Shown piece by piece: positions 20,715 to 63,740 of a stretch of 64,000 bases of DNA (positions are counted from its first letter, which is position 1; each line of letters begins with the position of its first letter). The notes under the pieces are model-generated. The model was not told the origin of the DNA and made no database searches. It saw nothing but the letters and a program-made list of their open reading frames with translations. Source of the stretch: Candidatus Pacearchaeota archaeon (GTDB taxonomy: Archaea; Nanobdellota; Nanobdellia; UBA10117; JABICX01); the NCBI GenBank assembly GCA_017608025.1, contig JAFCGM010000004.1:1-64000 (forward strand), written 5' to 3'. The position numbers were made by a program, and so were the translations under genes.

Positions 20715-20843
20715 GATAATTAAAAAAGATTTGTATTGTTTAATAACAAATACAATAAGGCATCAGACCAATCATTGCCTTATGAAAGTGCCAGCTGATT
20801 TTGCAGCTGGATAATTAAAAAAGATTTGTATTGTTTAATAACA
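20715..20843. repeat. 34-bp direct repeat flanking a two-hairpin element
   Basis: gataattaaaaaagatttgtattgtttaataaca at 20715-20748 and 20810-20843. Confidence 0.95.
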
Positions 20844-32822: not shown

Positions 32823-34918
32823 GCTCCCACCAAAGTTATTTTGCTGGCAATCTGCGACAGCAAAAAACTGCCAACAATTGCTATTAAGCAATATAAAATA
32901 GTTGATAATAATAAATTTTTTGAAACAAACTGCTTGAATTCAATCTTGTCAAAGCCGTAAGTAACTCCTGAATAAAGATATGAAAGTATAAACACAATCT
33001 CAATTATGTAAATTCCCACAATCAGCTGAAAAATCGGAGAAGGCATTGCACTTGAAATATTGAAGAATGAAATTGAGGAAATGTCAACTGGAGCAGCAGA
33101 AGTAGTTGCTGATGTTGAAAGCTCTGAAATCAAATTCATCTGCTTTCCAAGCTGAACCAAAACTCTTGTTATCAAAACAGAAAGCGAAACAACAACACCT
33201 GCAATAATTGGAGCCATGAACTGGGCCTGCATCTTAATTGAAGAAAGAGTGTCAGCAAGCAAATCCTTAAGCCTTTCATAAACCCGCTTAACATCCTTCA
33301 AATAATGCGAAACAGTAAGCAGGCTCCTTGAAGCAATCTTCGGACTCTTTTTCACTGACTCAACAAACATTGACATAACGCTTCTTATTGTTGCTGAAGG
33401 ATAGGAAATCAAAGCCCCGTTTTCCTTGTCAAAAAGCGATTCCCTCAAAGACATTCCTTTTTGCGAAAGATTTGAATAAACCAAACTGAAAAACTCTCCC
33501 GCCTCTGTGCCTGGATTTTCTTCAGCAATCTTAACCATTGCAACCTCAGCTGGAATATTCTGATCCATCTTAACTCCAAGCTGGTAAATTATTGAAGAAA
33601 AAGAATCCTCAATAGAGTTCAGCTTTTTCTTCAGAACATATGGTTTGTGATTTGAAAGCCAGTAATAAGCACTCAGAGATAAGCCAATTCCCGCAACAAA
33701 AAGAACTGAAAAATAAAATGAAGCATTATTTGAAAGAAAGAATTCTCTCAGTTCTTCCCCAACAAAAACTGCTCCTAAAACAGAAATGAAAAACGGAATT
33801 GAAAAAACTGCGAAAATCAAGATTCCCAAAAAAGCATAGAAAAACTTTGACTTTCGTTTCTCAAACTTAACTAATCCCGGATCTGTTGAGGAAATTCCAG
33901 AAGGTCTTGAAAGAAGAACATTTTTTGACATAAACCAAATAACAATCGCAAGAACAACATTGTAGAAAAGAAAAATGTAAATTGACTTTATTGAATCTCC
34001 CATAAATGCCCCAACCATTGGAATCAAGGTAAGAAGCAAAACAGGCAAAACAATTCCCAGCAAATAAATGCCTTTTATTGGCGATTGAAGATTATGCGCA
34101 TAATGAAGCATGTTGTCATTAACACTCTGCAAAATTGTCTCTTTTGCCTTTTTCATAAGGTCTTCTGCTCTCTCCTTGTTTGACTCTCTTAAAGAAGACG
34201 TAATCAAGTGCATTGAATTAATAAAAGAATCTGCTTTTCCTTTCCATATTTTTAAGTAATCTTCCAAAGACTCCTCAACAGAAGAAAAAGTTCCTGCCTG
34301 AAAATTCCACAAAATCTTAATAAAATCCAGAGAAAGCGGAGGAGCAAGGTTTTTTGAAATAAAGTACATTGCCCGCTCTAAATTCGAATCCTGTTTCATG
34401 TAAATAACTGTGTACAAAACAGCTAAAACAAACTGGTCTGACGCTTTTGCCTTCCATATTTGGTAAAGCCGCTTGGGATGGGACTTCAAGTAAAAGAAAA
34501 CACCTAAAGAAGCTCCTATCAGAATTGCAGTAATTACAAAACTTCCAAACAAAAAGAAAGACCCTATACTTAAAAAAAGCGACAAAAGAAGAGCAACAAC
34601 TGAAGCACTCAAAGTGTCCCTTGGTTTCAAATCCAAATGAATAATTCTCAAATATTGGTCAATTTCCTTCTCAGACTTCTCGCTCCCTTTTATTGGAAGA
34701 ATCTTTCCGCAAATCCTGGCAAATTTTTCATAAATCGTAGTTCCCTTGCTTAACTGTTCTTTTTTGAAAATGCTATACTCGTTTGAATAGTCAACTTTTC
34801 CTGGCTTCTTTAAGTTGAGGTCTTCCTTTATTTTATTTGAAAAATCAACCTGCTTCTTTGCAAAATCCTTTTTCTTGTTCAGAATTTCCTTCTTAAGAGA
34901 ATCCTCATCAATGCTCAT
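32819..34918 (-). CDS. Archaeal type IV pilus/archaellum membrane platform protein (TadC/FlaJ, T2SF domains)
   Basis: Two T2SF-like halves; downstream of the cognate ATPase; start MSIDEDSLKKEIL chosen. Confidence 0.82.
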   Translation of the reverse strand: MSIDEDSLKKEILNKKKDFAKKQVDFSNKIKEDLNLKKPGKVDYSNEYSIFKKEQLSKGTTIYEKFARICGKILPIKGSEKSEKEIDQYLRIIHLDLKPRDTLSASVVALLLSLFLSIGSFFLFGSFVITAILIGASLGVFFYLKSHPKRLYQIWKAKASDQFVLAVLYTVIYMKQDSNLERAMYFISKNLAPPLSLDFIKILWNFQAGTFSSVEESLEDYLKIWKGKADSFINSMHLITSSLRESNKERAEDLMKKAKETILQSVNDNMLHYAHNLQSPIKGIYLLGIVLPVLLLTLIPMVGAFMGDSIKSIYIFLFYNVVLAIVIWFMSKNVLLSRPSGISSTDPGLVKFEKRKSKFFYAFLGILIFAVFSIPFFISVLGAVFVGEELREFFLSNNASFYFSVLFVAGIGLSLSAYYWLSNHKPYVLKKKLNSIEDSFSSIIYQLGVKMDQNIPAEVAMVKIAEENPGTEAGEFFSLVYSNLSQKGMSLRESLFDKENGALISYPSATIRSVMSMFVESVKKSPKIASRSLLTVSHYLKDVKRVYERLKDLLADTLSSIKMQAQFMAPIIAGVVVSLSVLITRVLVQLGKQMNLISELSTSATTSAAPVDISSISFFNISSAMPSPIFQLIVGIYIIEIVFILSYLYSGVTYGFDKIEFKQFVSKNLLLSTILYCLIAIVGSFLLSQIASKITLVGA

Positions 34919-35085
34919 GAAAATAAGTATATGCAATAGAATATATATTTTGTTATCTAATAAATTTAGTATCAAAAAGCTTTATTCTTTTTCCGCCGCC
35001 GCTTTTTCTAAAAGGGGCGAGAGAATCCTCATCAATGCTCATGAAAATAAGTATATGCAATAGAATATATATTTTGTTATCTAAT
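34896..35085. repeat. 66-bp identical direct repeat (tadC-like 5' end plus upstream region) flanking a 58-bp insert with element G
   Basis: 34896-34961 and 35020-35085; element G at 34988-35019 recurs inverted at 62666-62697. Confidence 0.96.
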
Positions 35086-46292: not shown

Positions 46293-46551
46293 AACCTTTA
46301 TAATACTCAAAATCCACCCAAAATCATAATGGCAACAGGTGATTATCCCTGGACAGCGAAAGAATAATTTTTCTAGCCATGCTTATTTAAATCTAAATTG
46401 CTGTTCTTTTTTTAATGAGGCTTTTTTATCAAACAATTTTTGTAATTCTTTTAAACTAAAAAATTCTTCTCTTTTTGAGAGCTTTTTTCTAAAAAGTTCA
46501 GGAGGTAATAGTCAAAAATAAAGTTTTTGATGAAACTTTTTGAAAAAGTTG

Positions 46552-46700
46552 GGGTCATAGCATAACCCGGCAGTGCGGCCGGCTCCAGACTGCCTTTTTA
46601 AAAAAGGCAAGGTGCTAAAAAGTGCGTTTCGCTGCGCTCAAGCGCACGAAATGAAATGGGAGCAACCGGCTGGTGGGGGTTCAAATCCCTCTGACCCCAT
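46552..46700 (+). tRNA. trnW: tRNA-Trp (anticodon CCA at 46586-46588) with ~76-nt intron (46590-46665)
   Basis: Acceptor GGGGTCA/TGACCCC; D stem GCAT/GTGC; anticodon stem GCCGG/CCGGC; CTCC/GGAG helix with two 3-nt bulges fits a relaxed BHB splice site; T-loop TTCAAAT. Confidence 0.93.
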
Positions 46701-46773
46701 AAGATGGGATTGTTTGGGGGTTGGAAGACCCTTTTTGAAAGGGGATTCCGTTCAAATCCCTCTGACCCCATAT
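46680..46773 (+). repeat. 23-bp direct duplication of the tRNA-Trp 3' end flanking a hairpin insert
   Basis: gttcaaatccctctgaccccata at 46680-46702 and 46751-46773. Confidence 0.95.
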
Positions 46774-49223: not shown

Positions 49224-49431
49224 ACTTGTAAATAACACTCTTTATTAAATAAATTATGTGATTTTGAGTATACAAATATTTGTCGATTTTTCAGCTAAAA
49301 AAAGCCCAACAAAGTGACCTTAATAACCAGAACTTGGTCGCTGAAAGTGCCGGCTGATTTCGCAGCCGCGTGAGTCCCTCAGCTAGAAGGACAACCGCAA
49401 GGATTTTAAGCTTAATCTGAAAGAAAGAATT

Positions 49432-62663: not shown

Positions 62664-62814
62664 CTCGCCCCTTTTAGAAAAAGCGGCGGCGGAAAAATTC
62701 AATGAGAAAGCAGTTCCTTTTTGAGAACTTTTTCCAACTCTTGGTTTGGAATGAAGCAAGCAGGCATCAAATCAATATGTGCCTGCTGAAAGTGCAAGCT
62801 GATTTTGCAGCTTT

Positions 62815-62898
62815 GCGAGGATGCCGGAGCGGCCAAACGGGATGGACTCAAGATCCATTGGCTTAGTGCCTACGGGGGTTCAAATCCTCCTCCTCGCA
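62815..62898 (+). tRNA. trnL: tRNA-Leu (CAA)
   Basis: GCGAGGA/TCCTCGC acceptor; ATGGA-CTCAAGA-TCCAT anticodon arm; long variable arm. Confidence 0.94.
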
Positions 62899-63032
62899 TT
62901 TTTTCTTAGAAAGAAAACATGCATTAAAAGAAACTTTTCTTTTGGAAACTTACCTTTTCTTTTTTGAAAAGAAAAGGGAGAAATCCTCCTCCTCGCATTT
63001 TTTCTTAGAAAGAAAACATGCATTAAAAGAAA
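62882..63032 (+). repeat. 52-bp direct duplication of tRNA-Leu 3' end plus trailer, flanking a 47-bp hairpin insert
   Basis: aaatcctcctcctcgcattttttcttagaaagaaaacatgcattaaaagaaa at 62882-62933 and 62981-63032. Confidence 0.95.
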
Positions 63033-63159: not shown

Positions 63160-63657
63160 TCAGGCTTTATTCTCAAGTCCTTCAAGAGCTTCAGGAGTAA
63201 GTTCCTGATCTTGGCTTATTTTAAAATACTCGTAAAACTTTTTCGTAGGAAAAACAAGCTCAGTTTTTCCTTTTTTCTTTGACTCCACAAATCCTCTTTT
63301 CTTCAGTTTCTTAATGTGATTATAAGCCTTGTTGCTCCGAAACTTTGCAACTTCATTTTGAGTAATCTCCTTTTTCCAGGCAATATAAGCAAGAGTCTGT
63401 AAAACTGCCTTGTTCATCTCTGGAATTGCGGCTTCCTTAACTAAGTCAGAATACTCACCCCGAACCTTGAACTTCCATTTTTTGTTTTCCTCAACAAGAT
63501 TAATTCCCCTGTTAAAAAACTCCTCTTGCATTTTCTCTAATATTTTTTTAACCTGACCAATGCTGCCAACGCCAATTTTCCTTGACAAAGTCTTAACATG
63601 CATCCCTTCTGGAACGCAAAACAAAACTGCTTCAATTTTCTTCTTTAAATCTTCCAT
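63160..63657 (-). CDS. scpB: Chromosome segregation/condensation protein ScpB
   Basis: MEDLKKKIEAVLFCVPEGMHVKTLSRKIGVGSIGQVKKILEKM...TLAYIAWKKEITQNEVAKFRSNKAYNHIKKLKKRGFV; start placed at 63657 rather than 63714. Confidence 0.85.
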   Translation of the reverse strand: MEDLKKKIEAVLFCVPEGMHVKTLSRKIGVGSIGQVKKILEKMQEEFFNRGINLVEENKKWKFKVRGEYSDLVKEAAIPEMNKAVLQTLAYIAWKKEITQNEVAKFRSNKAYNHIKKLKKRGFVESKKKGKTELVFPTKKFYEYFKISQDQELTPEALEGLENKA

Positions 63658-63740
63658 CTTTGGATTTTGTTTAGGGGTTGGAAGACCCTTTTTGAAAGGG
63701 AATTCCTGCTTCAATTTTCTTCTTTAAACCTTCCATCTTT
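63627..63740. repeat. 35-bp direct repeat (scpB start region) flanking a hairpin insert of family D
   Basis: 63627-63661 and 63706-63740, one mismatch; insert includes the 39-bp block shared with 46712-46750. Confidence 0.95.

What the first reader, a model, noticed from the sequence alone, without database searches (positions are those of the whole stretch)
20749..20810. Two-hairpin element C with compensatory stem changes in three dispersed copies: possible structured RNA
Copies at about 20756-20810, 49313-49370 and 62764-62812 share stem 1, then GAAAGTGC, then stem 2. Stem 2 is CAGCTG-ATTTTG-CAGCTG, CGGCTG-ATTTCG-CAGCCG and AAGCTG-ATTTTG-CAGCTT, so the two outer pairs covary (C-G/C-G/A-T and A-T/G-C/A-T). 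Stem 1 is ATAAGGCA/TGCCTTAT, AGTGACC/GGTCGCT and AGCAGGCA/TGCCTGCT, also paired throughout with different sequence. Linker and loop are conserved while stems drift, as expected of selected RNA structure.
Basis: seen in the sequence. Interest (0 to 1): 0.85.

Follow-up and report, generated by a model that had tools for sequence, protein, structure and literature searches.

The report
Mobile pseudoknot RNA element in archaeon
A short stretch of DNA that folds as RNA into a hairpin plus a pseudoknot has copied itself around the genomes of small archaea, duplicating the target DNA at many insertion sites and landing inside tRNA genes as introns, so it looks like an undescribed kind of tiny mobile element.

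Summary
A covariance model finds about 16 copies in this 0.7 Mb genome, copies in 11 of 370 other genomes of the phylum, and one in a MAG labelled Proteobacteria. Across 48 distinct copies, 96% of pairs hold and 16 of 17 pairs show two-sided changes. The 'conserved' linker and loop pair with each other (AAA:UUU, with AUA:UAU, AGA:UCU, AAG:CUU and AAC:GUU replacements), making stem 2 an H-type pseudoknot; one linker pyrimidine covaries with a stem-2 pair as a base triple would. In at least ten copies the flanking DNA is duplicated (18-72 nt), usually starting right after the last base of stem 2; the window copy has a perfect 34-nt duplication. Two other families here (D, E) show the same 3'-end arrangement. 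Some copies sit in tRNA anticodon and T loops as introns. No reverse transcriptase, Cas1, Y1 transposase or TnpB was found in this genome (91.5% complete). Best reading: a non-autonomous mobile RNA element, SINE-like in behaviour, moved by machinery not yet identified. The structure and the duplications are shown; the RNA-copying step is inferred.

The parts
20715..20748 (.). target-site duplication, copy 1 (34 nt)
   Evidence: 34/34 identical to 20810-20843
20749..20809 (+). element C copy 1: 6-nt lead, stem 1 (20755-20762/20776-20783), linker with pseudoknot strand AAA 20785-20787, stem 2 (20792-20797/20804-20809), loop pseudoknot strand UUU 20799-20801
20810..20843 (.). target-site duplication, copy 2, starting at the base after stem 2
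49313..49368 (+). element C copy 2: stem 1 49313-49319/49336-49342; linker AAA 49344-49346; stem 2 49351-49356/49363-49368; loop UUU 49358-49360
49369..49392 (+). family-D-like 3' end (GUGAGUCCCU...AAGGAC) fused behind copy 2; about 40 nt upstream of a glycosyltransferase gene (49432)
62759..62813 (+). element C copy 3: stem 1 62759-62766/62780-62787; linker AAA 62789-62791; stem 2 62796-62801/62808-62813; loop UUU 62803-62805; abuts tRNA-Leu (62815), no duplication detected
46679..46772 (+). family E insertion: element about 46702-46749 between 23-nt duplications of the 3' end of an intron-containing tRNA
63627..63740 (+). family E insertion between 34/35-nt duplications

Best explanation
Element C is a very small non-coding mobile element. 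Its + strand folds into stem 1 followed by a 3'-terminal H-type pseudoknot: linker AAA pairs with loop UUU, stem 2 is the second helix, and a linker pyrimidine lies against a stem-2 pair. This 3' end is the signal by which enzymes acting in trans join the element to a nicked or cut target. The join falls exactly after the last base of stem 2, the other end is loose, and filling the staggered cut leaves the target duplicated (18-72 nt for element C). I think the + strand copy is an RNA that is reverse transcribed at the target, which would make it a SINE-like retroposon. Some insertions fall in tRNA loops, where the inserted DNA is apparently removed as an intron. Shown: fold, covariation, copies, duplications, junction precision, position inside tRNA genes. 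Inferred: RNA intermediate, enzyme in trans, splicing.
For: Copies: about 16 in the genome. Covariation: 48 distinct copies, 96.1% of cells paired, 16/17 pairs changed on both sides, slid controls 28-51%. The pseudoknot was not in the model used to align, yet pairs in 100% of cells with four kinds of compensatory replacement; the linker pyrimidine is U with U-A (34) and C with C-G (9) or U-G (2). Duplications: at least ten element-C copies in several genomes, plus L014/L089, have flanking repeats that beat shuffles, nearly all with zero offset from stem 2. Family E 6/6 and several family-D copies show the same geometry. Genome-wide, 52 clusters of near direct repeats enclosing a short insert in 601 kb (8.7 per 100 kb), 0 in five simulated genomes and 0-1.4 per 100 kb in most sampled relatives. 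Strand: with equal scoring of the two mismatch types, stem-1 G.T pairs exceed A.C pairs 24:4 or 26:9 (37:30 when both are rewarded), so the + strand is probably the folded one. tRNA genes interrupted at loops.
Against: No reverse transcriptase domain (PF00078) in this genome, nor in element-bearing relatives G002, G007, G011, G016, G053; only G009 has one. Completeness is 91.5% here and lower in some carriers, so a missing gene is possible in one genome but repeated absence is a real difficulty. G.T bias and base triples also fit single-stranded DNA, and some G.T cells are shared by descent. Many copies (including two of the three in the window) have no detectable duplication. No transcript data.
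Confidence: 0.6

Rival explanations
1. A DNA transposon-like element: the + strand is excised or copied as single-stranded DNA, its folded 3' end is recognised by an unidentified DNA-strand-transfer enzyme, and a wide staggered cut gives the long duplication.
For: No reverse transcriptase in most carriers; folded single-stranded ends are used by IS200/IS605 elements (own knowledge); tRNA loops are classic tyrosine-integrase sites (own knowledge) and one XerC/D-like recombinase is present.
Against: No Y1 transposase, Cas1 or TnpB domain found; duplications of 17-84 nt with a loose 5' end are not made by those enzymes as known; an H-type pseudoknot with triple-like covariation is typical of RNA.
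Confidence: 0.25
2. A stationary regulatory or guide RNA, or r-protein leader element.
For: Strong covariation; several copies lie directly before start codons, including ribosomal protein genes.
Against: Target duplications of differing sequence and length, insertion antisense inside tRNA genes, patchy spread, different genes in different genomes. A copy could still be co-opted locally.
Confidence: 0.08
3. No mobility: replication slippage and template switching at hairpins create both compensatory stem changes (one arm copied from the other) and local tandem duplications.
For: A perfect 73-nt tandem duplication of flank plus element exists at C28:130974-131119 approximately; arm-copying can mimic covariation in stems.
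Against: Does not explain homologous element copies in unrelated sites, duplications of unrelated target sequence, the linker-loop compensations or the base-triple covariation.
Confidence: 0.05
4. Scaffold of an RNA-guided nuclease (TnpB/Cas12-like), with the adjoining target as guide.
For: A pseudoknot directly followed by target sequence resembles the Cas12a crRNA or omegaRNA layout (own knowledge).
Against: No TnpB/Cas12f domain in the genome; the element lacks any protein gene and repeats its target on both sides.
Confidence: 0.02

Closest known systems
SINEs and other trans-mobilised retroposons of eukaryotes
   Same: Short, non-coding, structured 3' end, precise 3' junction, variable 5' end, variable-length target duplications
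   Different: Archaeal, only about 55-80 nt, pseudoknot 3' end, no partner reverse transcriptase found, no poly-A or simple-repeat tail
REP/REPIN and PATE elements of the IS200/IS605 (Y1) group
   Same: Small dispersed palindromic elements without genes
   Different: Those make no target duplications and depend on Y1 transposases; here duplications are long and no Y1 domain is present
MITEs
   Same: Small non-autonomous dispersed elements with target duplications
   Different: No terminal inverted repeats joining the two ends; duplications are far longer and of variable length
Transposed archaeal tRNA introns (Thermoproteales; Fujishima et al. 2010, as reported in PMC4033280 and PMC4090602)
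   Different: There the mechanism is stated as unknown (PMC4090602); here the inserted sequence also occurs outside tRNA genes with target duplications, and lies antisense within tRNA genes
Introners (TE-derived introns of eukaryotes, PMC9860276)
   Same: Mobile elements that seed introns
   Different: Spliceosomal introns there; here tRNA-type introns are implied

Membership tests
MITE | terminal inverted repeats at the two ends | tested here: not met
   The two ends are two separate hairpin units; no inverted repeat joins them
MITE | short fixed-length target duplication | tested here: not met
   Lengths vary, 18-72 nt for element C
REP/IS200-IS605-derived element | Y1 transposase in the genome | tested here: not met
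   PF01797 absent
REP/IS200-IS605-derived element | no target duplication | tested here: not met
   Duplications present
SINE-like retroposon | target duplications of variable length with one precise end | tested here: met
SINE-like retroposon | partner reverse transcriptase | tested here: not met
   PF00078 absent here and in most carriers; genomes incomplete
SINE-like retroposon | transcribed RNA intermediate | not testable with these tools
   no expression data
Casposon or CRISPR-type integration | Cas1 integrase | tested here: not met
   PF01867 absent
TnpB/Cas12 guide RNA | associated nuclease | tested here: not met
   PF07282 absent
Known Rfam RNA family | score above a gathering threshold | tested here: not met
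   Only tRNA and 5S matches in the window and in loci carrying copies
Archaeal tRNA intron | lies within a tRNA gene that reads as tRNA when removed | tested here: met
   Some copies only: T loop L133, L137; anticodon loop C8:35210 and L082; Rfam tRNA matches span the element at L026 and L082; control 4/300
Archaeal tRNA intron | bulge-helix-bulge motif and splicing | not tested
   not modelled

The most novel reading that the evidence does not exclude
Small archaea carry a class of micro-retroposons, with several sequence families sharing only a 3'-terminal H-type pseudoknot, that copy through RNA into DNA with long target duplications and act as a continuing source of tRNA introns.
Probability: 0.4. 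Interest if true: 0.95.

Novelty: categorically new. Interest (0 to 1): 0.85.

Why it matters
Archaeal mobile elements of this size with long target duplications and a conserved 3' pseudoknot were not found in the papers searched (an open-access library only) and fail tests for the known classes. They offer a concrete, testable source for transposed archaeal tRNA introns, whose mechanism is called unknown in PMC4090602. They also imply an unidentified integration enzyme acting in very small genomes.

Tried and rejected
Model R1 was built with a structure string off by one to two columns (my error, revealed); R2 is correct and all covariation claims rest on R2, A3 or A7. The scan of genome contigs gave five exact matches: L013, L015, L016 and L017 lack a stem 1 and look like chance, mostly coding, matches, while L014 has both hairpins and a ~72-nt duplication of the end of an ornithine carbamoyltransferase gene. 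Viral contigs: no element C or E; nine family-D motif matches without convincing duplications. Searches for RT, Cas1, Y1 and TnpB in the genome were negative; a tyrosine recombinase is present but looks ordinary. The first G.U count was biased by its scoring and replaced.

Full report
What is there. The three copies exist at 20755-20809, 49313-49368 and 62759-62813. The core pattern is not expected by chance. A covariance model finds 15-16 copies in this genome of 0.7 Mb. Gene content around the window copies (L16p/L10e family, XPG/FEN1), interrupted tRNA genes and the small genomes of all relatives point to a DPANN-type archaeon; that label is my inference.

Structure. The 5-copy alignment already covaries. 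With copies from relatives, alignment A7 holds 51 matches, 48 distinct. 96.1% of cells pair and 16 of 17 pairs show changes on both sides; shuffles and slid versions do far worse. Stem counts lean towards the model, since the alignment was fitted to it. The pseudoknot was not in the model: linker bases A1-A3 and loop bases 2-4 read AAA/UUU 39 times, AUA/UAU 2, AAG/CUU 2, AGA/UCU 1, AAC/GUU 1, GAA/UUU 1. So the conserved linker and loop form one helix. The second base of the GYGC linker is U with a U-A pair in stem 2 (34), C with C-G (9) or U-G (2), as expected of U.A-U and C+.G-C triples in an H-type pseudoknot; the triple is inferred from covariation. G.T exceeds A.C in stem 1 under neutral or penalising scores, so the + strand probably folds.

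Mobility. The copy at 20755 lies between perfect 34-nt repeats. C26:45622, C25:39476, L081, L088, L139, L143, L146, L148, L150 and L014/L089 also lie between repeats of the target. In nearly all, the downstream repeat begins at the base after stem 2, while the upstream repeat ends a variable distance before stem 1. Duplicated targets include ends of protein genes (C26:45622, L089), tRNA ends (L139, L150) and intergenic DNA. The 3' flank is weakly biased to TGGGAA with A before the repeat. Two copies in the window (49313, 62759) and many others show no duplication, either because they are old or because they arose otherwise.

A wider phenomenon. A scan without reference to element C found 86 near direct-repeat pairs around short inserts in 601 kb, 52 clusters at a stricter threshold, against none in simulated genomes and few in most sampled relatives; some of the 86 are ordinary tandem repeats. 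Two families are clear. D ends in stem-UGGGUCCCUU-stem-AAGGAC, with compensating stem changes such as AAGCG/CGCUU, CCAGCG/CGCUGG and CUGCUG/CAGCAG, and with loop GUCUC paired to AGAAC; E ends GGGUU-GGAA-GACCC-hairpin-UUCC. Both can be drawn as 3'-terminal H-type pseudoknots whose last base touches the duplication. For D and E this is a by-eye reading on few copies. Some element-C copies carry a D end behind them.

tRNA genes. Removing the element plus some flank restores a tRNA across the junction at C8:35210 and L082 (anticodon loop) and L133 and L137 (T loop), always antisense to the element; control 4 of 300 random points. Rfam tRNA matches span the element at L026 and L082. L073, L087 and L134 look alike by eye. 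A D-loop insertion with an intact tRNA behind it occurs at L139. Copies inside tRNA loops show no clear duplication. Transposed tRNA introns are known in Thermoproteales with mechanism unknown (PMC4033280, PMC4090602).

Spread. Using R2, 12 of 371 genomes of the phylum, this one included, have copies at E <= 0.001; the R1 search added G007, G016 and a weak hit in G029. The distribution is patchy. L014 is in a MAG labelled Proteobacteria; the label may be wrong and was not checked.

Mechanism. The precise 3' end, loose 5' end, variable long duplication and + strand fold resemble target-primed reverse transcription of a small RNA. The lack of a reverse transcriptase in most carriers is the main difficulty; DNA-level strand transfer is the main rival. 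No known enzyme class searched was found.

Noticed in passing
window 62882-63032: 52-nt perfect duplication of the 3' end of tRNA-Leu and its trailer around a 47-nt insert ending CCTTTTCTTTTTTGAAAAGAAAAGGGAG; the same insert family recurs at C8:30397 and C8:94678 with other duplications.
   Followed up: partly
window 34896-35085: 66-nt perfect duplication around a 58-nt insert ending GCCGCTTTTTCTAAAAGGGGCG, a hairpin family repeated across the genome with differing outer stems.
   Followed up: no
window 46551-46699: tRNA gene with an intron of about 75 nt, followed by a family E insertion duplicating its 3' end.
   Followed up: partly
C8:23210-31353 (L062): Ribosomal-protein cluster in which several genes are preceded by related units AAGGAACTTTCGCGCTATC...TGGGTCCCTTC..GAAGGAC(A)ATG; element C replaces the middle before the L2-like gene.
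   Followed up: partly
C28:131k (L005:1454-1599): Perfect tandem duplication of 20-nt flank plus element C (73-nt unit) followed by a diverged third flank copy.
   Followed up: partly
L131, L132, L147, L086: Copies placed directly before the second and third bases of start codons (genes reading as L10e, S2, S4 by eye), so the gene would now start GTG or TTG with the element's last base.
   Followed up: partly
C26:58836, C8:85473, C26:129304: Composite copies with a shared 35-nt two-hairpin insert (GGAACTTAGTTCC, GGGCTTTAGCCC) inside stem 2.
   Followed up: no
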